This document shows, in pieces, positions 13,438-40,845 of a stretch of DNA of 64,000 nt. A program made the translations under genes and the position numbers. The DNA is from Pelosinus sp. Its GTDB lineage: Bacteria; Bacillota; Negativicutes; Propionisporales; Propionisporaceae. The notes beneath the pieces were generated by a model. The model saw only the letters and a program-made list of their open reading frames with translations, was not told the origin of the DNA and did no database searches. Position 1 is the first letter of the stretch; each line of letters begins with the position of its first letter. The DNA is taken from the NCBI GenBank assembly GCA_021372375.1, contig JAJFUN010000062.1:1-64000 (forward strand). Direction: 5' to 3'.

Positions 13438-13442
13438 CTACC

Positions 13443-15773: not shown

Positions 15774-15874
15774 AAATAAAAAAGCCACACAGGAATCTTA
15801 GAAACCCGCATGACCTCTAGGCTTGTTATGGAGCTGGTGATGGGACTCGAACCCGCGACCTGCTCATTACGAAT
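15774..15874. repeat. 101-bp direct repeat (distal attachment site)
   Basis: This stretch is identical by eye to 40715-40815 and contains the 3' half of tRNA-Thr up to the anticodon loop (15829-15874), then diverges. It is what integration into the 3' part of a tRNA gene leaves at the far end. Adjacent arms at 15980-16000 carry two GTTAGAA motifs, also found at 40673-40700 beside the integrase. A hairpin with T run (about 15910-15945) follows. Apart from regulatory copy 1 and this site, 15378-16159 holds no supported gene. Confidence 0.9.
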
Positions 15875-17233: not shown

Positions 17234-17264
17234 GTTATAACCTCCTTATGTACAATTCAATTAT

Positions 17265-17370
17265 ATGAGTAATTTTTACTCATATCAAGATAACGTGGGT
17301 AAAAAATCGAAAAAATTACCCACGTTTTTATAACGTGAGTAGTTTTTACCTATATACTATAACATATTAG
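17265..17370. promoter_or_regulatory. palindromic regulatory repeat, copy 2 (upstream of fic)
   Basis: This block has the palindrome TGAGTAATTTTTACTCA (17266-17282), then CGTGGGTAA/TTACCCACG (17294-17302/17316-17324), then GTGAGTAGTTTTTACC and TATATACTATA. It is over 90% identical to copy 3. It lies directly upstream of the fic GTG start and downstream of the rhuM stop. Confidence 0.75.
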
Positions 17371-18643: not shown

Positions 18644-18799
18644 TATGGCGGTAGCTCTATCCAATATGAAACGAAGGAACAGTTTGAAAAATACCGGCAA
18701 TTTATGGACGAAACGTCTTGCCACAGGTTTCATTTGAGTAATTTTTACTCACATCAAGATAACGTGGGTAAAAAATCGAAAAAATTACCCACGTTTTAA
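18644..18799 (+). pseudogene. possible gene fragment, partly overlapping the repeat
   Basis: An open frame without its own start reads YGGSSIQYETKEQFEKYRQF and on into repeat copy 3 until TAA. The first 30 residues look protein-like in composition, so this could be the tail of a gene cut by rearrangement. No family is recognised and chance is not excluded. Confidence 0.25.
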
Positions 18800-18838
18800 T
18801 AACGTGAGTAGTTTTTACCTATATACTATAGCATATTA
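18735..18838. promoter_or_regulatory. palindromic regulatory repeat, copy 3 (upstream of rhuM)
   Basis: TGAGTAATTTTTACTCA (18735-18751), CGTGGGTAA/TTACCCACG (18763-18771/18785-18793) and GTGAGTAGTTTTTACC followed by TATATACTATAGCATATTA repeat copy 2 almost base for base. It lies between the rhuM start and the structured RNA block, so it could serve transcription in both directions. Confidence 0.75.
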
Positions 18839-18849
18839 CTCCCTTGATG

Positions 18850-19990
18850 GCAGAAGACAAAAAAGCATGGCTACTTAGATTCCTGCCCTGCTATCTTTTT
18901 GTCTCAAGACGTCCGGTCTAGTTCTCTCCGCTGCCTCACCTTGTTTTAAGGGCGCTATAAGAAAAGACTCTGAACGCGGGAGAGGGAGGCCCTGGAGCGC
19001 CCTTGCGATAGCACCTTGGGGTGTCTATCGCCCGACTCGACAGGACTTTCGTCGCGAAATCAGGCGAGTGATAAGGCTTGGGCAGCGGCTCTAAAAAATC
19101 TCGAGCCTCACGTCTGCAGCCTCTCCGCTTGGTGAGAAAATGAGGCGAGTGCTAAAGAAATCGATAGCGGGTACAAAAGAAAACTCGAGCCGCCTTGCTA
19201 AAGTTTGCCTCGTGGCCGTGGCAGAAGGCTAACTCGTGACTAGGCCGGTAGATAAAAACTAGTGCCGCTTGATTGTCCTCGACCACCGAAGCTAAGAAGC
19301 GGCATAGTGCGTACCCCCAACATTTTGGCGATACCTCTATGGGGGGTTGGGGGTAGCGGTGCCCCCTGCGCGCTTTTTGCAGGGGGATGACACACCCATC
19401 CTTCCCCCAACAGCTTCAAAATCTCCCATCGCATTCCTCTGTGAGGGGTGGAGAGGGGTTTGGGGGGAGGAGGGGTGTGTCATAGCGGGCGCACTATGCT
19501 GCTTCGTCTCTTGCGATAAGACGAAAAAAGGCCTTTTCCTCTTGTGCTACAATCAAGGCTGACTTCGCGTGGACATGGGGCGTAGTATCCCCGTGGAGCC
19601 GTAGGCGAGCTTAGCCCCATGGACGGCGCGGGAGACAGGCAGACTATTTGCGGGTCGAGTTTACGATGACGCTGCCTCCGGAGGACCATAATGTATAGAT
19701 GCCTTGCGACAATCGGAGCAAGACATGTATACCGCTAATCGGAGCAAGCGAATGCGGAGGCGTTTGCTGCCGATCATTCGCGCCGCGACAACCTCTCGCC
19801 ATTTGATGAGTCTATGAGCGTCAGCGAAAGCCTGCAGCTCACTATTTCGGTCGAGCCCCGCGATGACTCTAGAGTGCAGCGCCCGAAGGGCGTAACGGTT
19901 TTCTTTTGATAAAGCCCTGTAAGCAAAAGCGAGACTTGGTACGGATTCCAAGTCCTGCTCTGCACTTTGGCAGGAATTTTATTTTTCCAC
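18850..19990 (+). ncRNA. candidate giant structured non-coding RNA
   Basis: No plausible protein is encoded here, yet the DNA is GC-rich and full of helices. Examples: 18855-18863/18896-18904 (9 bp); GGGCGCT 18950-18956/18996-19002; an 11-bp hairpin with TTGG loop at 19005-19031; 19296-19311/19490-19505, a 16-bp long-range helix with one G-U pair. That helix encloses three hairpins: 19312-19321/19346-19355 (10 bp), 19362-19369/19379-19386 (8 bp) and 19387-19408/19462-19483 (22 bp, one mismatch and one G-U). CATGGGGC 19574-19581 pairs with 19614-19621. ATTCCTGCC near 18880 can pair with GGCAGGAAT near 19970, closing the whole molecule. A + strand terminator ends it. Size and phage-like setting recall the GOLLD and ROOL classes of ornate RNA, but I cannot match it to either. 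Confidence 0.6.
19950..19987 (+). terminator. terminator of the structured RNA
   Basis: TCCTGC (19953-19958) pairs with GCAGGA (19970-19975), followed on the + strand by ATTTTATTTTT. It suggests that the block at 18.85-19.99 kb is transcribed on the + strand, opposite to all neighbouring protein genes. Confidence 0.6.
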
Positions 19991-20011
19991 CATAAAAAAG
20001 TTTCCTGCTTT

Positions 20012-20049
20012 AAAATACAATAAAGGACTTACCGCTTAAGATAAGTCCT
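20012..20049 (-). terminator. hairpin AGGACTTA...TAAGTCCT
   Basis: AGGACTTA (20024-20031) pairs with TAAGTCCT (20042-20049); the minus strand continues TTATTGTATTTT. A near copy of this hairpin lies at 46993-47020. Confidence 0.55.
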
Positions 20050-20059
20050 CTTGATATAT

Positions 20060-20480
20060 AGCTTTTAATACAAGAGCCCGTAATGATCTACGCTACAGCC
20101 AATACCGATTATTACATACCTATACGCAAACTTTCGCCTACCCACAAGCATTACACGACCGATACTGACCTTTGCTCGACTACTGAACATACCTGCCGAA
20201 CCTACTGCAATCGTTAGACTGCAATAGACCCATCATAGCGTTCCCCGGGGTAACTCTCCAGCACCCCCAGCAGTCTTAGCTCGACAGCCATACATCCCTT
20301 TCGACCACACGACAACAGTTGGGCTGCCGTACAGCCTTGGGAGACATATAACCATCTGCCCGCCGACTACTACCGAGCCTTGCGACCCGGCAGTAATCTT
20401 TGGCCGACCAATGCCGAACACCTTGCGATATCCGACACCAGTCTTGGCTCAACCATTACGAACCCTTGTGATGTTATTAT
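20060..20480 (-). repeat. degenerate tandem repeats of about 21 nt
   Basis: Read on the minus strand, units of about 19-25 bases recur around a TCG...CAAGG core (for example GTCGGCCAAAGATTACTGCC, GTCGCAAGGCTCGGTAGTAG, AGCAAAGGTCAGTATCGGTC). Frames are broken by stops, although one 62-codon stretch (20233-20421) is open and rich in Gly and Val. The block lies between the AGGACTTA hairpin and a TTGGTCATAATAACATCACA motif (minus strand). This may be a decayed repeat-protein gene or part of an RNA. I see no supported gene here. Confidence 0.5.
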
Positions 20481-20558
20481 GACCAATATCATCAATATAA
20501 CTCTTGGTAAATCATAGAATTAAATTTTATATCTATTTATGATATCCCGCAAACGATG

Positions 20559-20651
20559 AAAAAAAGTTAACCCCAGGAGCAAAGGAATTCTAAGTACATA
20601 CGTACCTACTCCCATTCGGGAACCCAGCTTTTGTCCTTCGCAGGTTAACTT
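20559..20651 (-). ncRNA. compact four-helix RNA with intrinsic terminator
   Basis: On the minus strand GTTAACC (20649-20643) pairs with GGTTAAC (20572-20566). Inside it GCGAAGG pairs with CCTTTGC, and that helix encloses two hairpins, TCCC-GAAT-GGGA and AGGTAC-GTAT-GTACTT. Seven Ts follow the outer stem at 20565-20559. This could be a small RNA or a structured 3' end of the DUF1659 cassette transcript. Confidence 0.5.
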
Positions 20652-20734
20652 GCTAACTATATTATGCCACACTAATAAAATTCATGCCATACTCTTCAAA
20701 AACTTGGCGACATATATACACCTCATGACTTTTT

Positions 20735-20778
20735 TATCATAAAAACAGCTGCTGCCTCAATCCTGAGACACCAGCTGC
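20735..20778 (-). terminator. terminator after the small-gene cassette
   Basis: A 14-bp stem with two non-Watson-Crick positions (20746-20759 with 20764-20777) is followed on the minus strand by TTTTTATGATAAAAAAG. It comes right after the stop of the 47-aa gene. Confidence 0.75.
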
Positions 20779-20781
20779 TTT

Positions 20782-22540: not shown

Positions 22541-22566
22541 AGAAAACCCCCGCCAGCGGCAGGGGG
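22541..22566 (-). terminator. terminator of the Druantia-like operon
   Basis: A GC-rich hairpin (CCCCCTGCC-GCT-GGCGGGGG on the minus strand, 22547-22565) is followed by TTTTCTGTTATT. It lies between the DUF3883 gene and the amidase. Confidence 0.75.
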
Positions 22567-22648: not shown

Positions 22649-23440
22649 CTATATAGTAAACAACTGTCTACTTTCTACTGCCCAGTTAATAGCTATAGTT
22701 TGATATATCCTTTTTGTAGCCTGCAGTTTTTTATATGGATTAACTATTATTGTTACTATGGGCTCTATATTAATGTTACTGATTAATACAAGTACATATC
22801 GATCTTTAAGCTTTTTAGCAACACTCCACTCTTTGTCTGTAAATATGATTCCTCCTTTTTGTGCTGATATTCCCTTTACTTCAAAAACAATTTGATCTGA
22901 TTCTAGCTCGAAATCATAGCCACAACCATCATTTCTCTTATCTATAATGTGCCCTCTAAGCCCTTTTATTGCACCCGCTTCATATTGACTTAAAAAAATA
23001 TCCTCCGCCTGTTTCCCTGTGATCCCCCTGGTACCATACTCCTTTTGGGATTTAGTAGACTCTCTCCTTTTATCTTCTAAATTCAGTGAATCAATATAAA
23101 TTTGAATATTATCTGATTTATCAGGGTTCTCCAGCTGATTAGACAAAATATCCCGTACAATTTCCGCTAATGCATTTTCGCTCAGGTACTGGTATTTTTC
23201 AACAACCTCCAGACGACTTGGCCGCAGTTCACGCTGATGCCACCCTTTCCTTTTATTGCTATGCAAAGGGTCATATTCATCACGCATGTTCTTAATTGTA
23301 TTGGGATTCATACCCATCTTTTCCCCGATCTTTCCAAACGCCATCGTAAAACTAGCGTACCCTAAAGTTGAAAGAGCATCTCGATCAAATCTTGAAAGAT
23401 AATAGGCTATAATTAACGCCAGTTTATGATTGACTTCCAT
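22649..23440 (-). CDS. DUF3883-domain protein with helical DNA-binding-like head
   Basis: The 263-residue protein has two parts. Residues 1-90 (NHKLALIIAYYLSRFDRDAL, MGMNPNTIKNMRDEYDPL, WHQRELRPSR) resemble a head domain found on restriction-type proteins. Residues 150-263 (GYDFELESDQIVFEVKGIS, FTDKEWSVAKKLKDRYVL) match DUF3883, a PD-(D/E)XK-like fold with Asp and ExK residues (D, then FEVKG). It could be the DNA-cutting or recognition partner of the Druantia-like operon. ATG 23440 follows GGGAGGG. It is the last gene before the terminator. Confidence 0.8.
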   Translation of the reverse strand: MEVNHKLALIIAYYLSRFDRDALSTLGYASFTMAFGKIGEKMGMNPNTIKNMRDEYDPLHSNKRKGWHQRELRPSRLEVVEKYQYLSENALAEIVRDILSNQLENPDKSDNIQIYIDSLNLEDKRRESTKSQKEYGTRGITGKQAEDIFLSQYEAGAIKGLRGHIIDKRNDGCGYDFELESDQIVFEVKGISAQKGGIIFTDKEWSVAKKLKDRYVLVLISNINIEPIVTIIVNPYKKLQATKRIYQTIAINWAVESRQLFTI

Positions 23441-23508
23441 ATAAAACCCTCCCATATATTGAAGAAGCCCTTAAAAGATTTGAATATTAGAGCGTTTTTG
23501 ATACCATT

Positions 23509-24582
23509 TTAATTATGTCCATACCCGACTGTATAATTTGTTGCATAAAAACAACCTGGTACAGTATCTCTACCTAGATTGTATATACTAAATTTTGCTC
23601 CTATCTTAGGAATATCATCAATTGTATTATCCAACCCACGAATGGTGAAAAAGCTATCCATATCCCTAATTTTTAAAGTAAGTTTTCCATTGTTTGAAGG
23701 TTTAATTTCACTAATAAAACCTCTTACATCAATAGGCCAAAGTGGATGCTCCGATTTTGTTTCCCAATATTTATCACAAGCAGGACGAAAGCCACAATAT
23801 CTACATGAGTTTGGCGTAGGATTTGCAAGTGCTTGATTTTGACCTAACAGTAGCTTTTCATTAATATCTCTCAATAATGAGATGGCTTGTTCAATAAGAA
23901 GGATGCATTCATCCGGAATAAAGTCAACATCTTTTTCATAACAATCCAACCCAATAACTGAAGCCCTTGCAGGCCAGACTTTAAATTTTTTATAATATAG
24001 TGCCGCATACATTCTTAATTGAAGTACATATTCTAATTTCACAATGCCCCATTGTTCATCGAATACAGTTCCACTTTTAAAATCAACAATATGAATTCCA
24101 GAAGAAGACTGTCGTACTAAATCAATAAATCCACCAACTTGTTTATCCGGGCTCTCCACCCAAACCTCTGATTTAGTTAAGCCTAATGCCTTCCCTGAGT
24201 ACTGCTTAAATCCGATAAGATTCCTTATAAGGGCAAAGCAACTCTCCTTCTTCACGTCATAATTGTGAGCATGTATTCTTAATGGTATAAATCTATTTTC
24301 TAGAGACGATTTTCGCATAGTATGTTCTATTTCAGATATTTTCATCTCCCATTTTTCAAGCATTTCTTCTTCATTTCTTATAAAGCCCTTTGAGGTATCT
24401 TCTATTAAGTTGTGAATTAGAGTACCAATTTTTGCAGAAGGGGACCCCGGTAAAAGCGGATCCCTTTTACCATTTGCTGTCAATAATTCCCTCAGTGGAC
24501 AGTTTTTCAGTGATAGGAAACGGCTAGGTGATATTCTCGTCAAGGGTTTCGCTATTATTTTAGGTAGAGAAGCTATCATCAT
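23509..24582 (-). CDS. RecB/Cas4-like PD-(D/E)XK nuclease with Fe-S cysteines
   Basis: The protein of 357 residues shows the RecB/Cas4 layout: an N-terminal Cys (LKNCPLREL), IGTLIHNLIED, the catalytic GGFIDLVRQ with IVDFKSG (Asp, Asp-x-Lys), QLRMYAALY, and a Cys triplet CRYCGFRPACDKYW. With the early Cys this makes a 4Fe-4S site as in AddB/Cas4. About 80 further residues form a beta-rich OB-like tail. ATG 24582 overlaps the DruE stop by four bases (ATGA), so it is translationally coupled to the helicase gene. It is not one of the four core Druantia type II genes. Confidence 0.88.
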   Translation of the reverse strand: MMIASLPKIIAKPLTRISPSRFLSLKNCPLRELLTANGKRDPLLPGSPSAKIGTLIHNLIEDTSKGFIRNEEEMLEKWEMKISEIEHTMRKSSLENRFIPLRIHAHNYDVKKESCFALIRNLIGFKQYSGKALGLTKSEVWVESPDKQVGGFIDLVRQSSSGIHIVDFKSGTVFDEQWGIVKLEYVLQLRMYAALYYKKFKVWPARASVIGLDCYEKDVDFIPDECILLIEQAISLLRDINEKLLLGQNQALANPTPNSCRYCGFRPACDKYWETKSEHPLWPIDVRGFISEIKPSNNGKLTLKIRDMDSFFTIRGLDNTIDDIPKIGAKFSIYNLGRDTVPGCFYATNYTVGYGHN

Positions 24583-27500
24583 GGTGCATTTCGGACCATA
24601 AAGCGATGGCAATCACCAGGTCGACGTAATAAATTAAACGTGTCAATAAATTCCGCGTCACCACCTGCCGACACTACTGCTTTTGCGAGTAAGCCTGTAG
24701 GATTTAATATATTCCATAATGGATGGACAACAACAAACCTTCGCTGGCCTGCAATAAATCCAGGTAATTGATCAAAATTTGCTGCCTGATAATTGAAAAA
24801 GGTTGCAAATTTATCCCTTTCTCTGATAGCAATATCTGGCCAGTCACGCAGTTCTGGAACAGTAAAGTTACCATCCAGCCCCACATTATGTTGAGCATCC
24901 AAAAGAATACGTATGTAGGACATTGCCAGTCGCCAATCCAGTAAACCGTGATATGGCATATTTCGATAAACCTTTAAGCAATCGTAACATGCGGAATCAC
25001 ATCTATGATTACTATTAATAATAGTATCTGCGTATGATCCTGCATATGGTTTACACGTTTCCGTAAGCATATCTTTAAAGTGCATCCACAAATATCTTGT
25101 AAACCCAGCCCCATTTGGTAACCGATCGCTTAGTACCATATCAGCAATACCTGGCTGCCCGGGGTTAAACTCTTCTCTAGATATGTTGGCAATTTCAATT
25201 TCGTCAGGATCAATATCTAGTTTCCCCGCGAGTACTCGCCTAAGTAAGAATGCAGCAGAATATACCGCTCCCCGTACACCACCAGGTAAGGAATAACGTA
25301 CATCTGGATCTAACATAACTCCGGCTGGTACTTGAGTAGGAATTATATGAAGGACATCTGTTGTTTTTCCCGCGCCAAGAGCAACCTTTTCGGCATTGTT
25401 ATTATTCCCGTCAGTAAATCGACAAGCTATCCACTGCCTTTCTAATCTTGGTCCGCTTCCTGGAGAGGGCGTTATACGTTGAGTTCCTTCAAATAATTGG
25501 CCAGCATTATCATTTACTCTCCAAACCCTTCCGTCCTGAGCTAGATAAACACTAGCATTTGTACCACTAACGTTTGTTAAAGATAACCCCTGAGAAGTCT
25601 CAACTAAAAGACTAGGTGATCCAAAACTAATCTCATTATCCTCTTTAGCATTAGCTCCTCGTGATAAATCTGTTCTAAAGGCTTGTGGCGTTGCAACTTG
25701 AAATTTTGTAAACATATCTGGGGCGCCGCATTCTGGACATGCATCTTCATTAGGCTCAGAATCATGCGTAGAGGTTTTACCACATTTTTTACAGCGTAAC
25801 ATCCACTTTCGGTACGGGAGAGGATCACCTATTGATACCCAACGATTATTGGCCCACATCAAGGAACCGGTAAAACCAATAGCTGTGTGAATAACTTTAT
25901 CCTTAGTTTTTTGTGCCCCCGGAGCGAATTCACTTATTGCCAACTCTAAGTCCCTATCTATTGTAAAGCCTTTATCTCCTTCTAAACGATGATATAAAAG
26001 ACGAGTCCTAGTTGGCATACCGTACATAGGTAATATAGCCCCCTCTGCTAATCGCTCTGCCATTCCTTGACCTGTTAATTCAGGTGATATAGCAACTTTA
26101 TCTATTTGTGATGGCAGAACTTTAGAAAGCCATTCCAGTGTACCGAGATCTTGCTTGCCCAAGAGAGCTTGAATTACTTGTTTTTGCTCCTGATTCTGCG
26201 TAGCTAACCACTGCAATACAGCTGCTCTATTTTGTGTCCAGCCCGCTACTCCATCAACATCTTCAACAAGACCAAATTCCCCATGACTATCTGGTGGTTT
26301 CGGCCCGTGCCACCATCGCATTCCCGCTGAATGAAAAGCACGGCGTAAGCATTCTTTTGCAATCATGCGTTTTTGAATACGCTCTTGGTCCATGGTCAAA
26401 AACGGAACTGGTGGCGGATCGCCTGTTATCTTTTCAGGTTTGGAAAAGTAATACTCATCATGACTACGACCTCTACATAATGTCAATACAACTGCAAATG
26501 CCTGTCCACGGCGCCCTGCACGGCCCACTCTTTGCTGATAATTAAATCTCATTGGAGGCATATTGGCTAACTGTACCGCCTGCAGGCTTCCAATATCTAC
26601 ACCCACTTCCATGGTTGTAGTAACACTTAGAGCATCTATTTCGTCGACACTTTGATAATAATTTCTTGTCTGATTAGCTAAATTAGTGACAATCCCTCGG
26701 AAATGTCTCTGACGTTCCCCCTGATCATCCGACTGCGCCGTTAATTCCTCACAATGCAGTCGGAGAGGGGGACGACCGGAGACGACTGGATGGGCAATGT
26801 AATTCTTCTTCCATATAAACTCGCAAGTATTATCCGCAGTATGATCCAAAGTACATAAACAATTCGTACATATTCCAGCCGAATAGTGTAAGTGATATCG
26901 CCCACAACGAGGGCAAGTCCACACTGGATCTGCATTAACCGATACCCGAACATCAAGCAATCTTGTAGTTAAAATAGCATTTTGGTGTCCTGCATCGTGT
27001 AACAGATCAAATACTGTCGTGCCTAATAGATTCTCACCAATTCCAACCTTTTTCGAAACAGCTCTAATATATTTTTTTATAGATGCCTTACATGATGAGT
27101 AATTAATACTTCCTTGTATTGTATCATCATATTTTGACGGGCTGTATCTGTAATTATCGCCTAAGATTCGAATAAAAGAATCGCAAATCTGTGTCAGTTC
27201 TTCCTTAGTAATACCTAAATTATTCGATGCATACTGAATATCCATTATAGATGTATGTGCTTTAAGCCATCCTAACCCTGATGATTCTAAACCAAAATAT
27301 AGTCTTCCGAAAAATAAATCGCCAATAGACTTCAACAAAGCATCAGTCACATCATTCTTAGCTTTTTGTGTTGTTATGGGCAGATTTTGATACCATTCTT
27401 GGTTTTGAACATCAAATAATTCGGTCCAATGATGCTCTCTATTATCCCACTCAAAACTCTGGACTTCAAGATCGTTGCCCGCAGGATTTACACCAAGAGA

Positions 27501-30299
27501 TAAAAACCGTTTTATTAATCGTCCACAAGTGTTATTATCGGCTAATACAGAAGCAATACTTATTATTCTTTCGGAGGCGATAGTTCGTATTTCCTGTAAT
27601 CGTTTAACTGCTTCATCCCGTTTCTGGCACAAATCTGCTTCTTGGGCGGGCGGCAATATTCCAGACGGTATTGGGTTATTCTCATATTGTAGGTCTACCG
27701 ATATCTGCTCTTTAGCATCACGATTGGCTTCTAAATATTCTTTAGCATATGGGCCCAAATTAGCCCGGCTATTGGAGATATCATCTAACAATTCCGGTTT
27801 TCCTAAAACAAGTGACCTAATTTCGTGTAGTACAATCTCTCGAGTTAATTCTGAATAATGATTGCGTTCTACGCCATTTGCAATTTGAGCTGCATCCTCA
27901 CGACTATCGGAAAATATAACAAGCTTACGTTTTGCCCAATAAGGAAGCTGGTAAAATAGTTCTTTTGTAAAAACCTGGCTTACTTTCGAAAAACCAGTTC
28001 TAAATCCCCGAATTGGCGATTTACGTTGGCGTCTCGTATGATTGGCTGAGCATGCTGGACACACGCAGGGCAAAGCTCTATGCTGCTGCAAATTTGTATC
28101 ATTAGGTTCATTAATACAAAAAAGATAGCCTCTTACCCAGTTATCAGGATCTATAATAGCCTTGTCATGAGTCAGTTCTACATTACCCGTCAAATTACTA
28201 AGGCTTGCCTCTACCCACTCTGCTTCTGTCGCAGGCGTCCATTTACCGGTAAGATCGTTGCGATGGGCATTTATAGACGGCTGTTGCCAAGTCCCAGTAA
28301 AACCGAATGTTTGATTTTCACTCGGCCAAAAAACAGCATAATCCAAAAAAGTACGACGCTCAACAAACCTAGCAGGCTGTCGATCAGGTATACCCTCAAT
28401 ATCCGGATCTGTAGCAAGCATTTCTATGGAACCATTAGCCTGCTTTAACCGACTCCCCCCCAACATTACTGTGCCACAATGCTCACAGTAAAGGAGTTCT
28501 AGTACTCTATGTCCTGTTGTCCTACAAATTATTTGTGACGAAGGGAAGAGCTCTCCAACTGGACGACCTGTAAGAGGTTTAGTAGAAGCCCAAAGACCTT
28601 CAATATTTCGGAAGAAATAATGAAGTCTAAATGAGGGTAAAGATGTTTTTGCATGTATTGCATCAAATAGTCCTCTCGAAATTAGTAGTCCTCTAACTGC
28701 TTTACGCCACTCCGGATAGTTCCCAAAAATATTCTGCGAAAAATCCCATAGTGAAACTGCTTTTAGTTCTTGACATACTTCACACGCTTTTAACATCCGT
28801 TCATTTATATTAAGTTTTGGATTGTTTAACCATTGTAGATACTTGTCCATACCTATACCAACCATAGCTTGCCCCCCAAGCATTTGGGTTGCTTGTTCAA
28901 AAACCCATTCCGGAATGTTTGGATAATGATCCGCAATAAGAGTAAATGGATCTCCTGGTAAGTACTTATTTCCTGATATATCTTGTAGTGGCGGTGTTTT
29001 TCCCTCAATAACCTCAAAATTTGTCTGTCCAAAAAAATCCTGAAGAAACTGATGACTTTCTGGATTGTTCGCCTGAAGTGAAGCACTAGACGCTAATATC
29101 CGAAGTTGAGGATGACCAGGAGTAAGCCCTAATCTTAATAATAGTAATCTGAGTAAGTAAGCTACCTCCGCACCAGCTGTTCCACGATATAAATGTAACT
29201 CATCAACAACAAGATGGAAAATGCGATCTTTCTTTACCTGTGCACGTTGACCACTAGGTACATCATCGCCTTGGAGCCATTGTCTAGTTTTCTCAAAAAT
29301 ATGCTTATCTTCGTCACGCATAAGCATAATACTTAACATCGAAAAATTTGTAATGAAAATGTCAGGTGGTGCTTCCTGCATGTCCCAGCGACAGCGCATC
29401 TCACTACCGTCTAATCGAGGAAAAAAATAAATTGTATCTGAATCTGATTCGGGGTTGTTCGCATACTGTAACGCCTTTTGCGAAGTATCATCTATTATAG
29501 TTAGTTTTTTAACTAAATTGTCTAAACGCTTCTTGTCAGGATCCACTCCCCCTTTTTTATACTCGTGCCCTGCAATTGGAGTTTCACCATTGTACCGTCC
29601 TAAATAAATCTTATTACCATTGGCATTGGTTGATAGCCATTTCCGAGCACGCTCTGAATCCAGCGCTTTTCTTAATCGTGTTAACTGATCTTCTACTAAA
29701 GCGTTCATAGGATATAAAACTAATGCTCTTACGGCTGCCGGTCTTGTCTCATGTCCTCTTTGAGAAACACGGTAACTCCGTTCAAGATTACTTTCATTTT
29801 TTTTACACGAATTTAGCCAAGATGAATTCTTCCACCAATCATTTATATTCGCCGGTGCTTGTTGAGGCGGCGACCAGCTACAGATTTCCTTTGATAATTG
29901 TGCGAAAAGCGGCATAAGAAAAGATTCCGTTTTACCTGCACCTGTTCCGGCAGTTATAACACAATTTTTTCCATCCATAGCCTTCTGCAACATCTCATAT
30001 TGGTGACTATACAGGGGAAAATCCTCCATTAGTCCGCAATTTACTAACTCTTTAAATACGACTAATTCGGAAGATGTAAGGCCAGGAATATCTTGTACCG
30101 TTAACTGATCAATGTTTTTATTACTACTCTTATACCTAGGAAGAGGCTCTACTAAAGGTTCTCTGCTTAATACCCGATCTTTATAAAGAAGCTTTTCTCT
30201 CTCTTCCTCCAGTAATGGAAAACGAGTTCCAAATGCAGTTTTTATATAAAGAATGAAGTTATCTCGTATTTTATCAAAAGAACCTATCGGATCAATCAT
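24579..30299 (-). CDS. druE: giant DruE-like helicase with DUF1998
   Basis: The 1906-residue protein is an SF2 helicase: Walker A AGTGAGKT near residue 117, VVDELHLYRGTAGAE (motif II, DELH), LASSASL (motif III), EVGVDIGSLQAVQ and QRVGRAGRRGQ (motifs V and VI). Several zinc-ribbon pairs follow (CPRCGRYHLHYS, CKKCGKTSTHD...CPECG). The end has a DUF1998 cysteine cluster (CDSACYDCLKVYRN, LDWRLA). Size and DUF1998 match DruE of Druantia systems; DrmA of DISARM is a less likely alternative given the neighbours. ATG 30299 follows GGAGGGAG and overlaps the upstream gene by eight bases. Confidence 0.85.
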   Translation of the reverse strand: MIDPIGSFDKIRDNFILYIKTAFGTRFPLLEEEREKLLYKDRVLSREPLVEPLPRYKSSNKNIDQLTVQDIPGLTSSELVVFKELVNCGLMEDFPLYSHQYEMLQKAMDGKNCVITAGTGAGKTESFLMPLFAQLSKEICSWSPPQQAPANINDWWKNSSWLNSCKKNESNLERSYRVSQRGHETRPAAVRALVLYPMNALVEDQLTRLRKALDSERARKWLSTNANGNKIYLGRYNGETPIAGHEYKKGGVDPDKKRLDNLVKKLTIIDDTSQKALQYANNPESDSDTIYFFPRLDGSEMRCRWDMQEAPPDIFITNFSMLSIMLMRDEDKHIFEKTRQWLQGDDVPSGQRAQVKKDRIFHLVVDELHLYRGTAGAEVAYLLRLLLLRLGLTPGHPQLRILASSASLQANNPESHQFLQDFFGQTNFEVIEGKTPPLQDISGNKYLPGDPFTLIADHYPNIPEWVFEQATQMLGGQAMVGIGMDKYLQWLNNPKLNINERMLKACEVCQELKAVSLWDFSQNIFGNYPEWRKAVRGLLISRGLFDAIHAKTSLPSFRLHYFFRNIEGLWASTKPLTGRPVGELFPSSQIICRTTGHRVLELLYCEHCGTVMLGGSRLKQANGSIEMLATDPDIEGIPDRQPARFVERRTFLDYAVFWPSENQTFGFTGTWQQPSINAHRNDLTGKWTPATEAEWVEASLSNLTGNVELTHDKAIIDPDNWVRGYLFCINEPNDTNLQQHRALPCVCPACSANHTRRQRKSPIRGFRTGFSKVSQVFTKELFYQLPYWAKRKLVIFSDSREDAAQIANGVERNHYSELTREIVLHEIRSLVLGKPELLDDISNSRANLGPYAKEYLEANRDAKEQISVDLQYENNPIPSGILPPAQEADLCQKRDEAVKRLQEIRTIASERIISIASVLADNNTCGRLIKRFLSLGVNPAGNDLEVQSFEWDNREHHWTELFDVQNQEWYQNLPITTQKAKNDVTDALLKSIGDLFFGRLYFGLESSGLGWLKAHTSIMDIQYASNNLGITKEELTQICDSFIRILGDNYRYSPSKYDDTIQGSINYSSCKASIKKYIRAVSKKVGIGENLLGTTVFDLLHDAGHQNAILTTRLLDVRVSVNADPVWTCPRCGRYHLHYSAGICTNCLCTLDHTADNTCEFIWKKNYIAHPVVSGRPPLRLHCEELTAQSDDQGERQRHFRGIVTNLANQTRNYYQSVDEIDALSVTTTMEVGVDIGSLQAVQLANMPPMRFNYQQRVGRAGRRGQAFAVVLTLCRGRSHDEYYFSKPEKITGDPPPVPFLTMDQERIQKRMIAKECLRRAFHSAGMRWWHGPKPPDSHGEFGLVEDVDGVAGWTQNRAAVLQWLATQNQEQKQVIQALLGKQDLGTLEWLSKVLPSQIDKVAISPELTGQGMAERLAEGAILPMYGMPTRTRLLYHRLEGDKGFTIDRDLELAISEFAPGAQKTKDKVIHTAIGFTGSLMWANNRWVSIGDPLPYRKWMLRCKKCGKTSTHDSEPNEDACPECGAPDMFTKFQVATPQAFRTDLSRGANAKEDNEISFGSPSLLVETSQGLSLTNVSGTNASVYLAQDGRVWRVNDNAGQLFEGTQRITPSPGSGPRLERQWIACRFTDGNNNNAEKVALGAGKTTDVLHIIPTQVPAGVMLDPDVRYSLPGGVRGAVYSAAFLLRRVLAGKLDIDPDEIEIANISREEFNPGQPGIADMVLSDRLPNGAGFTRYLWMHFKDMLTETCKPYAGSYADTIINSNHRCDSACYDCLKVYRNMPYHGLLDWRLAMSYIRILLDAQHNVGLDGNFTVPELRDWPDIAIRERDKFATFFNYQAANFDQLPGFIAGQRRFVVVHPLWNILNPTGLLAKAVVSAGGDAEFIDTFNLLRRPGDCHRFMVRNAP

Positions 30300-31290
30300 T
30301 AATTTCTCCCTCCTCATATGAAGAAAAATCGTATGGTTGTAACTTTTGGCTAATCTTTTCTGCTATACCTGTAGCAATATTTAGAGGTACACCGAAATAT
30401 AAATCCATATTCAATCTGGTCGAAGGCCCCAGAACTCTTCCTTCGATATACCCCTCATTTGCAGCATATCCAGAAGATAATGCCGCAGCCCGAGCCAGTA
30501 ATCGGGGCAAAGGAACAAAACAAGGAACCCCAAGAATATGTCTTACCTTATCATAAAATAAAACGTTGAGCGCAGCCTTTTTTAAAACCATATACCGTCC
30601 CCAATCTCGATCAATTTCTACACTTTTCCCCTCAAAACTCCAGACATGAAACTTCTTTTGCGTATAAGGATCAGTAAATTCTAGTAATCCACTGACATTT
30701 TCACCTCGTCTCACTGATACAAAGTGAAGCCTTTCTAATGAAAACTGTCTACAGCTCCAATTAACACTGCTACTAATGTATCGTTGGAGAGTTGTTTCAT
30801 ATTCTTCCATACTGGATGTAGAGTGCATTATAACCCATGCCGCAGGTACATCAGATTGAATATCCATTCTTAAACTAACTGCTATCCGATTCAATAGAGA
30901 TCGCTCCACTACACTAACACTAATTTTATCTGGTAGTGGAATCCTTGCACGCTGTTGAGGACTCATACTAACTACCATCTGTTCCCGATTGGAACTTTGT
31001 AAATTCATTAAACTACGGATCATCTTAGGAGTTCGAGCCCCTGTCAATATTGCAGTATAGCACCCACGGCCAGGTAATAGCACGAGCTCAGGCCTACAGC
31101 AGTATACCCGTCTTCTGGAATAATCAAATTCACAGTGGGCAAGTTCCTCCATATGACGAGCTATTCGACGTCTGACATTGTTTGCATTTTCCTCACCTAT
31201 AGCATCACTATAAAGATAATCAATTGCTCTATCAAAGTCTGCAAATGAAATATCTCCTCTTGTTGCTAGTATCTCAAGTAATTGACTCAC
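30292..31290 (-). CDS. druG: DruG-like protein, middle gene of the Druantia-like operon
   Basis: The 332-residue protein has an N-terminal winged-helix-like part (ISFADFDRAIDYLYSD, RRRIARHMEELAHCEFDYSR) and a mixed C-terminal region (GVPCFVPLPRLLARAAAL) with no catalytic motif I can name. The identification rests on position: methyltransferase, two unknown proteins, then a giant DUF1998 helicase is the order described for Druantia type II (DruM-DruF-DruG-DruE). It overlaps both neighbours (four bases with DruF, eight with DruE), so the three are one coupled unit. Confidence 0.6.
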   Translation of the reverse strand: MSQLLEILATRGDISFADFDRAIDYLYSDAIGEENANNVRRRIARHMEELAHCEFDYSRRRVYCCRPELVLLPGRGCYTAILTGARTPKMIRSLMNLQSSNREQMVVSMSPQQRARIPLPDKISVSVVERSLLNRIAVSLRMDIQSDVPAAWVIMHSTSSMEEYETTLQRYISSSVNWSCRQFSLERLHFVSVRRGENVSGLLEFTDPYTQKKFHVWSFEGKSVEIDRDWGRYMVLKKAALNVLFYDKVRHILGVPCFVPLPRLLARAAALSSGYAANEGYIEGRVLGPSTRLNMDLYFGVPLNIATGIAEKISQKLQPYDFSSYEEGEIND

Positions 31291-33308
31291 AGCCTTCTCG
31301 CCTCTTTTTTGTAATTATTCCACATCTTAGCAAGAGTTTTCAAGCCAGGAGGAACTACATCGTAAAAAGTAAATATTTTTCTCCACTTCTTCCAATCATA
31401 CGTGATTTTTCTATCACTAAACTTAATATTAGCGATATCATCTAAGTGTCCAACATAATGAGCTTGCCATTTGTCTCTCCTAATTTTGGTAATTGCCCAA
31501 ACCGGATCCCACCCCGAAGGCAGACCTTCACCCGGCCAAAATACTATCTCTCCTGGATTACTGCCTAGAAATATTATTCGATGCGATAAATACGTTGGGA
31601 ACTCAGCATTATAAAGTGGTATATTTCTCAATATTTCTCCACTAACATTTGCTGCAGTAATTGTGCAATAACTGTTACTTATCTCCATTGGCTTTCCAAA
31701 ATGATCTCTCATTAACGGCTCATATTTATCCCTAATTCCCGATTCTTCTAGTTGCATAGTCGCTCTAACTGTCCGATCAGCAATACTAACCTCTATAGGA
31801 ATTGGTTGTGAGACCGGAAGATCACTGGGTAATTCCCATAATCCATCATTACCTAAGCTCAAAGCACATCCCAATGTCATCGGGGTAACATCAACGGGAC
31901 ATCCTTCTATTGCAATTTTCGGTGGCGCGAAATCAAAATATTTATTGCCCCTATCGGACTTGACCCCACCGACAAAATTCATTGATATAGAAATAGGAAG
32001 TCTTAAAACATCGATTCTTGAATGAGATTGTATGACATTTTCTATTTCAAACAATCGCCATCCTATGGGAAGACCATTTATAACATGATTTTCGCGAAAT
32101 ACTTGACATGACTTAGGACCCCATTCTGCAATTTCTTGTACATAATTATTACTACATGCTACAAAATACTTCGTGTTTGTCTGTATCGTATTGGTTTCAA
32201 TAAAACGGGGAAGTTTTTCCCTCATTCCATTTACAAATAATCGAACCTCTCTACCACAGAGGCGAACCCTCCAATTACCCGTTTCATCGCTAAATAATTC
32301 CCCCTCAGTCCAATTGAGATAACCTGCATCCAATATCCCCTTAGTACCTGGATCATAAAACTCAGTGCTCCATGAGTGAATAGAACCCCGACAGGCCCAC
32401 GTCGATTGGTCACGTTCCCTTATAAAAAACATTTCTTCTTCAGGTAAATCACGATTCACTTTAAATCTGATGGAGGATTTTACTGACTGCGAAACACTAT
32501 TATATTCAATGCATAGCCTAGCTGATCCAAAAATTCTAAAACCTTCCGCCGATAAACCTTCATTCTCCGCTCCTACATCACCAGACCAATCTTTTAAGTC
32601 CGCCGCGATTAAATCTATCAAGGCATCCCTCAAATCAGCAGTATCCCTTTCTTCACTTTGAAGTAATCGGCGAGTTCTCATCTGTAATTCAGAATGATTG
32701 CAAATCGCTTTCGATAATACCGATAAGTTGGGCGGACATGTCGGATCAAATCCATATTCTGCAAAAATCCTAGGAAGTGCAGCTCTTTCGTCTGCTGTGA
32801 TCAAGGTCTGTGATAAAGGAAAACCGACATGTACCCAACTCCCTCTAATTCGAGCTGAAAATCGACCTAAAGTCTCAACCATATCGGTCCTACTCCATAC
32901 TTCGAGATCCTGCCATAATTCATACATTCTACGAAATGAAGCAGGCGCTCCAATATCTGCTGGGTTACCTAAGAGTTGATTTAATCTTGGATAATATGCG
33001 TGACTAGAAAATTCTCCCTCTGTACCAGCAGCTAATACAAAGAAAACAAGATAAGCAACATATTGAGGCTTTCCCCAATTACTTCTCCAGTTATAATAAA
33101 TGTCATAGGCCTTTTGGCACAAATATGTCTTATTTGACCAATGCGGTCCTTTCTTAATTGCCGTAATAAAATCATTAAAGTCCGCTCCGGATCTCTCCCC
33201 TATTTTGCTGATTAAGGTTGCATCAGCAAAAAGTATAACTTCTCTTCCAGCCGCGGAAGGATTAAAAAAATAGTCTCGTAAACAGGTATTCCATTCCTGA
33301 TAGTTCAT
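31287..33308 (-). CDS. druF: DruF-like protein, first gene of the coupled Druantia-like unit
   Basis: The 673-residue protein has a helical N-terminus (WNTCLRDYFFNPSAAGREVI, YNWRSNWGKPQYVAYL) and a beta-rich remainder (FKVNRDLPEEEMFFIRERD, YVQEIAEWGPKSCQVF). No catalytic motif is recognised. It starts at ATG 33308 behind GGGGAGAG and ends ATGA-overlapping the next gene. Assigned to DruF only by gene order and size between a cytosine methyltransferase and DruG/DruE-like genes. A role in DNA recognition or complex building is inference. Confidence 0.6.
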   Translation of the reverse strand: MNYQEWNTCLRDYFFNPSAAGREVILFADATLISKIGERSGADFNDFITAIKKGPHWSNKTYLCQKAYDIYYNWRSNWGKPQYVAYLVFFVLAAGTEGEFSSHAYYPRLNQLLGNPADIGAPASFRRMYELWQDLEVWSRTDMVETLGRFSARIRGSWVHVGFPLSQTLITADERAALPRIFAEYGFDPTCPPNLSVLSKAICNHSELQMRTRRLLQSEERDTADLRDALIDLIAADLKDWSGDVGAENEGLSAEGFRIFGSARLCIEYNSVSQSVKSSIRFKVNRDLPEEEMFFIRERDQSTWACRGSIHSWSTEFYDPGTKGILDAGYLNWTEGELFSDETGNWRVRLCGREVRLFVNGMREKLPRFIETNTIQTNTKYFVACSNNYVQEIAEWGPKSCQVFRENHVINGLPIGWRLFEIENVIQSHSRIDVLRLPISISMNFVGGVKSDRGNKYFDFAPPKIAIEGCPVDVTPMTLGCALSLGNDGLWELPSDLPVSQPIPIEVSIADRTVRATMQLEESGIRDKYEPLMRDHFGKPMEISNSYCTITAANVSGEILRNIPLYNAEFPTYLSHRIIFLGSNPGEIVFWPGEGLPSGWDPVWAITKIRRDKWQAHYVGHLDDIANIKFSDRKITYDWKKWRKIFTFYDVVPPGLKTLAKMWNNYKKEARRL

Positions 33309-33403
33309 TTAGCTCTCCCCTTCCGAAGACGCAATAATGAAAAAGCTTCTACACAAAAAATGCTTATTCCTCTACTTTCTTGTATTTTTTTCACACATTC
33401 CAT

Positions 33404-33452
33404 AAAAAATGACAAATGCAACCCTATTATATGGATTGCATTTGTCATTTTT
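33404..33452 (-). terminator. 17-bp terminator between methyltransferase and druF
   Basis: A perfect 17-bp stem (33405-33421 with 33436-33452, core ATGACAAATGCAA) with T-rich flank on the minus strand ends the methyltransferase transcript. The methyltransferase is therefore expressed apart from, or before, the rest of the operon. Confidence 0.85.
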
Positions 33453-33472
33453 ATAAAATTCGATGTCTAAAT

Positions 33473-34630
33473 TCAAATAACATTGGGAGATTTATCCTCC
33501 CTCTTCCCCTCCAGGAAATCCAAAATGGTTTGAGCAATAGCTTTAGCCGCAATATACGGAACACCATTTCCAACAGTCTTAAACATATTGCTTAAAGTCA
33601 TTATTTCAGGCGGTAAAGCAAATTCTTTGGGCAAGGATTGTATAGCCAATGCTTCAGCAACTGATATCCTTCGTGCCTTATAGGGATGTATATGAACTTC
33701 ATTATTACCGTAGCAGGCTGTTGGAGAATATCGCCACCGATGAAGTCGTTTATATGATTTTTTAGAAACATCTCCTTCGTCTATAGTCTTGAATCTTGCA
33801 AGACCTGCCCTCGGAACAAAGCAATGTTTGGCATTAGGGTGTTTCATAACATTATTCAATTCAAACCAGTATTGAACCGTCAATTCTTTAGGTATATTGT
33901 TAGGACAAGCCATTGTTCCATCTTCAACAAAGGTATCAATAGTTGGCCAAGGACATTTACTAATCATTTCAATTGGATATTTAACATAACTTCCCCAAGG
34001 AAAAATTCCTTCCGGTAACATATTATTAATAGACTTTATTGATTTATTTTTTACTATTGATTTTTGAAAACCAATTAAAATAATTCGTTCCCTATCTTGT
34101 GGTACACCATATTCCATAGCATTAATTAAACGTTCAGTTGTAATATAACCTGCGTTATTAAGTTTCTTTTTCATTTCTTCAAAATAAGCACGATGTTTCT
34201 TAGTTCTCCAAAGTCCCTTAACATTTTCAAATACAAAAAAGTCAGGCTTTTGCTGACAAATCAACTTAATATATACATCCGATAACTTACCATTGTTTCC
34301 CTCCCGCCCACGGTTTTTTCCTCCGACTGAAAAATCTGGACAAGGAGGCCCACCAATAAAACCTATAAGATTTCTAGTTTTTCGAGCATCTATAATAAAA
34401 TTGGCAAGAAGTTGTTTATTTTCACCTTTGGTCAATATTGCCACGTCATCTTGATGATAGCCATAAATAGGATCAGGTAAATTTAATAGTTTTCTTGAAT
34501 ATTGGTATGATTCCATGAAAGGTGGATAAATTTCGTTTACTAAGCCAATTCTATATCCACTCATTTGAAAGCCTAGATCCAAGAACCCTGCTCCTGAAAA
34601 AAAAGAAAAAATAATAGGATAGTTAATCAT
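33473..34630 (-). CDS. druM: C5-cytosine DNA methyltransferase, DruM-like
   Basis: The 385-residue enzyme has the C5-cytosine motifs in order: FSFFSGAGFLDLGF (I, SAM binding), GGPPCPDFSVGGKNRG (IV, catalytic Cys), FVFENVKGL (VI, ENV), QDRERIILIG (VIII), SVAEALAIQSLP (IX) and TVGNGVPYIAAKAIA (X). It should methylate the host so that the neighbouring system spares it. ATG 34630 is used: AGGAG is well placed for it, whereas the ATG four codons earlier overlaps the Shine-Dalgarno sequence. It fits DruM of Druantia type II. The target site cannot be read here. Confidence 0.92.
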   Translation of the reverse strand: MINYPIIFSFFSGAGFLDLGFQMSGYRIGLVNEIYPPFMESYQYSRKLLNLPDPIYGYHQDDVAILTKGENKQLLANFIIDARKTRNLIGFIGGPPCPDFSVGGKNRGREGNNGKLSDVYIKLICQQKPDFFVFENVKGLWRTKKHRAYFEEMKKKLNNAGYITTERLINAMEYGVPQDRERIILIGFQKSIVKNKSIKSINNMLPEGIFPWGSYVKYPIEMISKCPWPTIDTFVEDGTMACPNNIPKELTVQYWFELNNVMKHPNAKHCFVPRAGLARFKTIDEGDVSKKSYKRLHRWRYSPTACYGNNEVHIHPYKARRISVAEALAIQSLPKEFALPPEIMTLSNMFKTVGNGVPYIAAKAIAQTILDFLEGKREDKSPNVI

Positions 34631-34642
34631 CATACTCCTCAT

Positions 34643-39450: not shown

Positions 39451-40641
39451 ATGCTTGGAAGCCTACACAAAAAAGGAAAAACGTACTATGTAGTTTTTGA
39501 TGAAGGCCGCGATCCTGTGACCAACAAGCGCAAGCAAAAATGGGTAAGTCTCAAAACCAGCGACAAAAAAACAGCCGAGGCCAAATACTCTGATATGGTG
39601 AAAAAAATTAACACCGAGGAATATACTGAACCCACCAAAATGCAGTTAGCCGAGTACCTCGAATATTGGCTCAAGAACTACGCCAAACACAGCGTCCGTC
39701 CATCAACCTATGGCGACTACGAATGCATTGTCCGCCAGCACTTCATTCCCGCCCTCGGCAAATATCCGCTTGCTAAATTATCCCCGCTTCATATCCAGGA
39801 GTTTCTAAACCAAAAACTTGCAACAAAGCTTTCATCCTCTACTGTGCGCAAACTATATGCCGTACTTCGCAAGGCTTTAAACAATGCTCTAAAATGGCAC
39901 CTTATCACAATAAACCCGTGCCTTGCCGTTGATCCGCCCCGCATCGAAAAATATAAAGCTGTCGTCTATTCGCCAGAGCAGCTAGAGGCTCTGTTTGGCG
40001 CCGCCTCAACTGAACAAATCTACCTTCCTGTACTCATTTCCGCCACCTGCGGCCTGCGCCGCGGCGAAGTATGCGGCCTCAGATGGAGCGATATCGACCT
40101 CGAGCGCAGCGTGCTATTTGTCCGAAACTCCCTTGACTGGCAAGACAGCCGCCTAACCTTAGTGCCGCTAAAAACCGCATCCAGCGAGCGAGCCGTCAAA
40201 CTGCCGCAGCTCACCCTGACCGCCCTAAAAACAGAAAAAAGCCGCCAAGCGGAAGATAAACTTCGCGCCGGCGGCATGTATGACGACCAAAACTTTGTCT
40301 GGGCCTGGGATGACGGCAGGCCTCACGATCCATTTTTCCTGTACAAACATTTCATAAAAACCATTCAAGACTACAACGATGCCCTTGATAGCGACATAGA
40401 CCTCACACCAGAACAAAAAACTGCCGCTAAACTGCCGACGATCCGCTTTCACGACCTCAGACACAGCCACGCGACAGCCCTCCTCCTCGCCGGTGTCCCC
40501 GTCAAAGTCATCAGCGAACGCCTCGGCCACTCCAGTATCACCATCACCCAGGACATTTATTCCCACGTATTACCTGAAATGCAGCAGCAAGCCGCTGACG
40601 AAATTGACAAGATGTTTGCCAAGAATCACGGTCAAAAATAA
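39451..40641 (+). CDS. int: tyrosine recombinase (integrase) of element B
   Basis: The 396-residue integrase has an AP2-like arm-binding N-terminus (GKTYYVVFDEGRDPVTNKRK), a SAM-like core-binding domain (QLAEYLEYWLKNYAKHSVRP) and a catalytic domain with R (CGLRRGEVCGLRW), HxxR (FHDLRHSHA), the second His (RLGHSSI) and Tyr (TQDIYSHVL). It follows AAGGAGG and points at tRNA-Thr, ending 128 bases from it. Together with the 101-bp repeat this fixes the target of integration. Confidence 0.95.
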   Translation: MLGSLHKKGKTYYVVFDEGRDPVTNKRKQKWVSLKTSDKKTAEAKYSDMVKKINTEEYTEPTKMQLAEYLEYWLKNYAKHSVRPSTYGDYECIVRQHFIPALGKYPLAKLSPLHIQEFLNQKLATKLSSSTVRKLYAVLRKALNNALKWHLITINPCLAVDPPRIEKYKAVVYSPEQLEALFGAASTEQIYLPVLISATCGLRRGEVCGLRWSDIDLERSVLFVRNSLDWQDSRLTLVPLKTASSERAVKLPQLTLTALKTEKSRQAEDKLRAGGMYDDQNFVWAWDDGRPHDPFFLYKHFIKTIQDYNDALDSDIDLTPEQKTAAKLPTIRFHDLRHSHATALLLAGVPVKVISERLGHSSITITQDIYSHVLPEMQQQAADEIDKMFAKNHGQK

Positions 40642-40714: not shown

Positions 40715-40815
40715 AAATAAAAAAGCCACACAGGAATCTTAGAAACCCGCATGACCTCTAGGCTTGTTATGGAGCTGGTGATGGGACTCGAACCCGCGAC
40801 CTGCTCATTACGAAT
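40715..40815. repeat. 101-bp direct repeat (tRNA-side attachment site)
   Basis: Identical by eye to 15774-15874. It spans the 3' half of tRNA-Thr (40770-40815) and 55 bases beyond. Three GTTAGAA motifs (40673-40698) next to it match arms at the other end and may be integrase arm sites. Confidence 0.9.
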
Positions 40816-40845
40816 GAGCTGCTCTACCAACTGAGCTACACCAGC
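40770..40845 (-). tRNA. tRNA-Thr (anticodon CGT)
   Basis: The minus strand folds as a full cloverleaf: acceptor GCTGGTG/CACCAGC, D arm with AGTTGGTA, anticodon stem GCTCA/TGAGC around TTCGTAA, T arm GCGGG-TTCGAGT-CCCAT, discriminator T and an encoded CCA. Anticodon CGT reads ACG (Thr). It is the target gene of both integrated elements. Confidence 0.95.

What the first reader, a model, noticed from the sequence alone, without database searches (positions are those of the whole stretch)
22649..34630. Druantia type II-like operon extended by two nuclease-type genes
Methyltransferase, two unknown proteins and a 1906-aa DUF1998 helicase follow in the DruM-DruF-DruG-DruE order. A Cas4/RecB-like nuclease with Fe-S cysteines is translationally coupled to DruE (ATGA overlap), and a DUF3883 protein follows before the terminator. 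Core Druantia type II is described as four genes, so the two extra genes could supply a missing cutting activity or form a new subtype.
Basis: partly seen in the sequence, partly recalled or inferred. Interest (0 to 1): 0.78.

Follow-up and report, generated by a model that had tools for sequence, protein, structure and literature searches.

The report
DruL-type Druantia operon with trans nuclease
This is a known kind of bacterial anti-virus gene cluster: one of the two supposedly extra nuclease genes turns out to be a standard, co-evolving part that probably does the DNA cutting, and the other is a rare add-on nuclease-like gene also found inside other defence systems.

Summary
The operon is real, on the minus strand, 34642 to 22649: DruM, DruF, DruL, DruE, DruK, NOV_C, then a terminator. 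It is not Druantia type II: the fourth core protein matches DruL (337 bits), not DruG, and DruF fits the type IV profile best. It is a type IV Druantia (PADLOC) that also carries DruM. The two "extra" genes differ. DruK, the Cas4/RecB-like nuclease, is a normal part: it follows DruE in 54 of 88 related loci, 53 of them at -113 to +7 bp; its distances track DruE's (rho 0.89) as closely as DruL's (0.90), and its active-site and Fe-S residues are invariant in 50 of 50. DruE's own C-terminal nuclease-like domain lacks conserved catalytic residues, so DruK plausibly does the cutting. The DUF3883/NOV_C gene does not track Druantia: 0 of 88 loci, 0 of 79 type IV genomes. Its five full-length relatives sit in DISARM class 2 (2), Z1/AIPR Mza-like clusters (2) and a methylase/restriction cluster (1). 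Most likely a helicase-nuclease pair (DruE-DruK) with DruM protecting self; NOV_C is probably an exchangeable accessory nuclease. The cluster rides on a 25-kb prophage-like element in a tRNA-Thr gene.

The parts
33473..34642 (-). druM, DNA C5-cytosine methyltransferase (PPC and ENV motifs present)
   Evidence: PF00145 163.8 bits; PADLOC MTase_II 561 and DruM2 475 bits; motifs
31287..33308 (-). druF, type IV form, unknown function
   Evidence: PADLOC DruF4 796 bits, DruF2 668 bits
30292..31290 (-). druL, unknown function; predicted fold confident (pLDDT 90.9) but without a convincing solved relative
   Evidence: PADLOC DruL4 337 bits
24579..30299 (-). druE, YprA-family DEAD/DUF1998 helicase with degenerate C-terminal nuclease-like domain (start given at the second ATG, ORF opens at 30317)
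   Evidence: PADLOC DruE4 1853 / DruE2 1842 bits; DEAD over cut-off
23509..24582 (-). druK, RecB/Cas4-like PD-(D/E)XK nuclease with four conserved cysteines; ATGA overlap with druE
   Evidence: PDDEXK_1 68.7 bits; DruK models 73/68/40 bits; invariant residues 50/50
22649..23440 (-). NOV_C/DUF3883 protein, candidate accessory PD-(D/E)XK nuclease; start at 23440 preferred because GGGAGG lies just upstream (ORF opens at 23455)
   Evidence: PF13020 52.4 bits; sequence; D176, E187, K189 invariant in 6 of 6
22547..22565 (-). terminator-like hairpin after the last gene (8 pairs, 7 G-C, T tail)
15774..15874 (.). att-like copy 1: 101-bp exact direct repeat
40715..40815 (.). att-like copy 2, covering the 3' part of tRNA-Thr (40770-40845)
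39451..40641 (+). tyrosine integrase of the carrier element
   Evidence: PF00589 80.4 bits

Best explanation
A DruL-type (type IV) Druantia defence operon, DruM-DruF-DruL-DruE-DruK, with one added gene. DruE is a YprA-family translocating helicase whose own C-terminal nuclease fold is degenerate; DruK, made by translational coupling from the next gene, is the working nuclease, so the pair forms a two-subunit helicase-nuclease that unwinds and degrades invading DNA. DruF and DruL would recognise the infection or license loading. DruM methylates host cytosines and marks self. NOV_C is an interchangeable accessory nuclease that adds a second cut. Shown: gene order, families, conservation, correlated evolution of DruE and DruK, intact DruK motifs, absence of conserved catalytic residues in DruE's C-terminus. 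Inferred: complex formation, DNA cutting, role of DruM as self mark, roles of DruF, DruL and NOV_C.
For: PADLOC matches for all five core proteins. DruK directly after DruE in 54 of 88 loci, 53 of the 54 gaps from -113 to +7 bp. DruE-DruK distance correlation 0.889 (n=49; highest of 500 permutations 0.283) against DruL 0.901 (n=40) and nearby DruM 0.487 (n=56). In 50 of 50 full-length DruK: C38, G63, H67, G161, D164, D177, K179, Q198, Y202, C270, C273, C279. DruE residues 1826-1912 model like PD-(D/E)XK resolvases (1ob8 Z 5.6, rmsd 3.2, 82 aligned; 3hrl 4.3; 3r3p 4.2; pLDDT 89.7), yet the conserved residues there are HPLW and TFNLLRRP with no ExK (84 sequences). Bell et al. 2025 (PMC12458937, section 4 parts 1-2 and section 26 read) report inactivated Vsr domains in Druantia I and II helicases; Wu et al. 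2026 (PMC13192584, abstract and passages) report DruE of type III as a helicase-nuclease. Vsr, HhH-GPD or AspBHI-type genes occur in 47 of 88 loci, all 47 with a C5 methylase, which fits an active DruM.
Against: No experiment. DruK is missing next to DruE in 34 of 88 loci (7 of these have under 3 kb after DruE; 27 of the 72 loci with room lack it), including the two DruE proteins nearest to this one (L012, L051) and the cyanobacterial loci, so DruE can exist without it. Z-scores for the dead nuclease domain are under 8. Distance correlation cannot separate a physical pair from mere joint inheritance. NOV_C was seen with Druantia only once.
Confidence: 0.6

Rival explanations
1. NOV_C is not part of the Druantia machine: it is an independent restriction-type gene or prophage cargo that happens to lie behind the operon.
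For: 0 of 88 DruE loci and 0 of 79 type IV genomes have it; in L105 a relative lies next to a DUF1659-like protein and a cell-wall hydrolase (read from the sequence, not scanned), the same kind of neighbours as here, and in a methylase plus restriction-enzyme cluster.
Against: Same strand, 68 bp behind DruK with its own ribosome-binding site and no terminator-like site listed in the gap, then a strong terminator. In L111 a relative follows DrmB of DISARM by 6 bp, showing operon membership in a related helicase system.
Confidence: 0.45
2. DruM and NOV_C form an ordinary type II restriction-modification pair lying around the Druantia core.
For: Five of the six NOV_C loci (window included) have a C5 methylase in the same cluster.
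Against: DruM here is closest to methylases of other Druantia IV loci (L078 61%, L015 58%, L062 57% identical) that lack NOV_C, so the two have no visible shared history; two of the loci are DISARM with its own methylase; Terribacillus (L102) has no methylase annotated within 9 kb.
Confidence: 0.15
3. DruK is an auxiliary repair or end-processing enzyme and the effector cut comes from a host nuclease such as RecBCD/AddAB.
For: RecB/Cas4-type family; many DruE loci lack DruK; Druantia III depends on host RecD (PMC13192584 abstract).
Against: Immediate coupling to DruE and DruL-like correlated evolution.
Confidence: 0.2

Closest known systems
Druantia type IV (PADLOC; Payne et al. 2021, PMC8565338)
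   Same: DruE, DruF and DruL, no DruG; patchy and wide distribution
   Different: Described as lacking DruM; DruK not named in the paper's text. Here DruM and DruK are present, plus NOV_C
Druantia type II
   Same: DruM, DruF-like and DruE-like proteins; DruE scores nearly the same with type II and type IV profiles
   Different: No DruG; DruL and DruK instead
DISARM class 2
   Same: YprA/DUF1998 helicase module, C5 methylase; two DISARM loci carry a NOV_C relative
   Different: Helicase split in DrmA and DrmB; no DruF/DruL/DruK
Mza-like Z1/AIPR clusters
   Same: Two such loci carry a full-length NOV_C relative; one also has methylase and Vsr
   Different: Different helicase (Z1) and core; no Druantia proteins
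Cas4/RecB-type Fe-S nucleases
   Same: DruK has the H, D, DxK, QxxxY residues and four cysteines
   Different: No CRISPR genes were seen beside it; tied to DruE

Membership tests
Druantia type IV | DruE helicase | tested here: met
   DruE4 model 1853 bits over 7-1907
Druantia type IV | DruF | tested here: met
   DruF4 796 bits full length
Druantia type IV | DruL | tested here: met
   DruL4 337 bits full length
Druantia type IV | Absence of DruM and DruG, as worded by Payne et al. | tested here: not met
   No DruG match, but a DruM is present; so filed as a DruM-bearing variant. A DruM-like gene lies near the core in 59 of 88 loci
Druantia type II | DruG | tested here: not met
   No DruG model among matches up to E=1 for the six proteins (for DruE and DruM only the best 25 rows were shown)
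Druantia type II | DruM, DruF, DruE | tested here: met
   DruM2 475, DruF2 668, DruE2 1842 bits
RecB/Cas4-type PD-(D/E)XK nuclease (DruK) | Catalytic residues and four cysteines | tested here: met
   Invariant in 50 of 50 full-length DruK
RecB/Cas4-type PD-(D/E)XK nuclease (DruK) | Nuclease activity and Fe-S cluster | not testable with these tools
   Needs protein
NOV_C/DUF3883 | Pfam model above cut-off | tested here: met
   52.4 bits, cut-off 22.1
PD-(D/E)XK nuclease (NOV_C protein) | Acidic and ExK residues of a PD-(D/E)XK site conserved | tested here: met
   D176, E187, K189 in 6 of 6; fold not modelled
Active nuclease domain in DruE | Conserved ExK/acidic triad in the C-terminal domain | tested here: not met
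   84-sequence alignment; model PD-(D/E)XK-like, Z 4.2-5.6
DISARM | DrmA and DrmB as best matches | tested here: not met
   DrmA only 40 bits against DruE 1853
Type IV CoCoNuT (synonym of Druantia II in PMC12458937) | CnuB homologue with coiled coil | not tested
   Not examined

The most novel reading that the evidence does not exclude
The small NOV_C/DUF3883 protein is a portable nuclease effector that plugs into several unrelated helicase-plus-cytosine-methylase defence systems (DISARM class 2, Mza-like, Druantia IV), and in Druantia IV the helicase has handed its lost nuclease function to separately encoded subunits (DruK, and here NOV_C as a second cutter).
Probability: 0.35. Interest if true: 0.62.

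Novelty: new variant of a known kind. Interest (0 to 1): 0.45.

Why it matters
I found no mechanism for Druantia type IV in the papers searched. The data turn it into a testable claim: its helicase carries a dead nuclease domain and the cutting is done by DruK. If true, the helicase-nuclease core seen in Druantia III would hold across types, with the nuclease fused in one and separate in the other. The NOV_C contexts give a concrete candidate for an effector shared between DISARM, Mza-like and Druantia systems.

Tried and rejected
Type II assignment: rejected for want of DruG. 'Both extra genes belong together': rejected by the survey. 'NOV_C replaces the DISARM nuclease DrmC': considered because NOV_C follows DrmB in L111, then dropped, since a PLD-family frame lies about 5.5 kb away in that genome; in G249 the only PLD matches are on another contig. 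'NOV_C is the partner of DruM': weakened by DruM kinship. My script label 'MvaI' for a family in 7 of 88 loci was wrong: Pfam and PADLOC call it an AspBHI-type, methyl-directed restriction enzyme. DruL fold: confident model, but no PDB match with Foldseek E under 0.001 and best Z 4.5 (gyrase/topoisomerase IV fragment), which I treat as uninformative. Searches that found nothing: DruE and NOV_C in viral contigs, NOV_C in phages, NOV_C profile in PDB up to E=10, DruK in PDB up to E=0.1, 'Druantia' with 'DruK' in papers. A solved helicase (9wae, 765 bits) is a close relative of this DruE, but its title was not shown to me and I found no paper for it. The viral fold library was not used.

Limits of the survey: 80 best of 471 loci from one genome-contig scan plus 8 of the 69 plasmid records, so it leans to close relatives; 16 of 88 loci have under 3 kb after DruE; five of 89 DruE (window included) were dropped from the tree for being short or split (84 used); Fisher tests and the distance permutations are not corrected for kinship.
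Full report
What is there. The finding's six genes exist on the minus strand, in the order and at the places given. PADLOC profiles name five of them: DruM, DruF4, DruL4, DruE (types IV and II almost tied) and DruK; the sixth matches TmtA profiles through its NOV_C part and little else. Pfam gives DNA_methylase, DEAD, PDDEXK_1 and NOV_C above cut-off and nothing for DruF and DruL. NCBIfam adds only weak Cas4, AddA and RecB echoes for DruK. The ATGA junction between DruE and DruK is exact. The last gene has a GGGAGG just upstream of an ATG at 23440, and a strong hairpin with a T tail stands after it at 22565-22547.

Which Druantia. Payne et al. 2021 (PMC8565338, passages read) define type IV by DruE, DruF and DruL, and say that it lacks the DruM and DruG of type II. 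Here DruL is present and DruG is not found, so type II fails; DruM is present, so the wording for type IV is not fully met either. The survey shows that this is common: among 88 related loci (80 from a genome scan seeded with an alignment of seven DruE proteins; 8 from plasmids) 83 have a DruF match, 81 a DruL match (fused to DruF in 37), 67 a DruM-like gene of which 59 lie near the core, and 54 a DruK next to DruE. I therefore file it as a DruM-bearing variant of type IV. A three-gene form, DruF-DruL-DruE alone, prevails in cyanobacteria.

DruK is core in this lineage. Of the 54 adjacent DruK genes, 53 start between 113 bp before and 7 bp after the end of DruE; one more locus (L069) has a DruK on the other strand. 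Pairwise distances of DruK follow those of DruE (Spearman 0.889, 49 loci, permuted maximum 0.283), like DruL (0.901, 40 loci) and unlike nearby DruM (0.487, 56 loci; 0.552 on the 43 loci shared with DruK). All 50 full-length DruK keep the RecB/Cas4 set of residues and four cysteines. DruK and DruM presence go together (46 both, 8 DruK only, 13 DruM only, 21 neither; Fisher p 7.5e-6, uncorrected for kinship).

The helicase's own nuclease looks dead. The last 240 residues of DruE were modelled from 32 sequences (pLDDT 89.7). Residues 2-134 match the DUF1998 region of MrfA (6znp, Z 8.2, rmsd 3.6, 111 aligned); residues 154-240 match PD-(D/E)XK enzymes weakly (1ob8 Z 5.6, rmsd 3.2, 82 aligned; 3hrl 4.3; 3r3p 4.2). 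In 84 DruE proteins the conserved residues there are HPLW and TFNLLRRP; there is no conserved ExK. This agrees with Bell et al. 2025 (PMC12458937; section 4 parts 1-2 and section 26 read), who report inactivated Vsr domains in Druantia I and II helicases. The words DUF3883, Cas4, DruF and Druantia Type IV do not occur in its main text. For Druantia III, a preprint describes DruE as a helicase-nuclease (PMC13192584; abstract and passages). Together these suggest that DruK provides in trans what other types carry fused. Against this, 34 of 88 loci lack an adjacent DruK, among them the two nearest DruE proteins, L012 and L051, which instead carry DruM, Vsr and an AspBHI-type enzyme.

The methylase side is a changeable kit. 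Vsr occurs in 35 of 88 loci, HhH-GPD glycosylase-like genes in 8, AspBHI-type genes in 7; in all, 47 loci have at least one, and all 47 hold a DruM-like methylase; none of the 21 loci without one has any. Vsr mends T:G mismatches from deaminated 5-methylcytosine, and some HhH enzymes do the same (recalled knowledge), so DruM is probably an active C5 methylase. The window has no such gene in the operon.

NOV_C. In none of the 88 loci did the window's protein find a relative, and none of 79 type IV genomes searched has one at the thresholds used (39, E up to 1e-6; 40, E up to 1e-15; one locus, L039, was not held). Elsewhere it is rare: among 398 genomes of the phylum, 10 with a match including the window's own, of which two others were full-length; 1 of 300 of the class, the window's own; 2 of 296 genomes of the phylum of L030, one full-length; 2 of 378 in the phylum of L018, apparently the same two genomes as before by contig and position; 2 plasmid records; no phage. 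The five distinct full-length relatives lie in: L111, DrmA-DrmB-NOV_C with a DrmMII-type methylase and HhH gene; L104/L113, DrmB, NOV_C, DrmMII-type methylase, HhH-like gene and a 1119-aa frame upstream that by look is DrmA, with transposase- and integrase-like genes between (that last frame was not scanned); L103, Vsr, methylase, a histidine-kinase-type ATPase, NOV_C, Z1 (MzaC), PD-(D/E)XK and AIPR (MzaE); L102, NOV_C, AIPR, Z1 (MzaC) without an annotated methylase; L105, NOV_C, HhH-like gene, methylase and a REase_II match. D176, E187 and K189 are invariant in the six. I read NOV_C as an accessory nuclease that moves between helicase systems mostly coupled to a C5 methylase; that it works with Druantia here is an inference.

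Carrier. A 101-bp exact repeat at 15774-15874 and 40715-40815, the latter over the 3' part of tRNA-Thr, bounds 24.9 kb holding an integrase, HTH proteins, ERF, a RecB-like exonuclease, SSB, replication-type genes, the Druantia operon, an amidase, RhuM and Fic. I saw no capsid or terminase gene among the frames I scanned, but did not run a phage-family scan. A third repeat copy (75%) at 11898-11998 encloses McrBC, which suggests stepwise stacking of islands at this tRNA.

Verdict. The system is known in kind. What is new is the evidence that DruK is a co-evolving core nuclease paired with a degenerate DruE nuclease domain, and the occurrence of NOV_C across DISARM, Mza-like and Druantia clusters. 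Paper searches for 'Druantia type IV', 'Druantia' with 'DruK', 'DISARM' with 'DUF3883', and 'Druantia', 'PADLOC' and 'DruL' found no description of either (the one hit was seen in the listing only). The library lacks most subscription journals.

Noticed in passing
window 15774-15874, 40715-40815, 11898-11998: Three att-like repeats at a tRNA-Thr: a 24.9-kb prophage-like element carrying the Druantia operon, and a 3.9-kb stretch with McrBC beside it, as if islands stacked at one tRNA.
   Followed up: partly
window 12163-15377: McrC (PF10117, 247 bits) and an AAA McrB-like protein, a modification-dependent restriction system, next to a Druantia with a C5 methylase; compatibility of the two is an open question.
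   Followed up: no
window 15509-15615, 17263-17369, 18732-18838: A 107-bp direct repeat in three copies (96 and 70% to the reference) around the Fic and RhuM genes.
   Followed up: no
window 18840-20780: About 2 kb without a convincing ORF and no Rfam match, higher G+C than its left-hand surroundings.
   Followed up: no
L012:17723-18979, and L051, L019, L021, L035, L037, L038: AspBHI-type methyl-directed restriction enzymes beside Druantia loci that also hold a C5 methylase, a seemingly risky pair (one member, from L012, was scanned).
   Followed up: partly
L111:9097-15284, L104: NOV_C protein within DISARM class 2 loci, 6 bp behind DrmB in L111.
   Followed up: partly
L003:19688-20602: An annotated PD-(D/E)XK gene 4 kb after a DruK-less cyanobacterial DruE, not matched by the DruK profile.
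   Followed up: no
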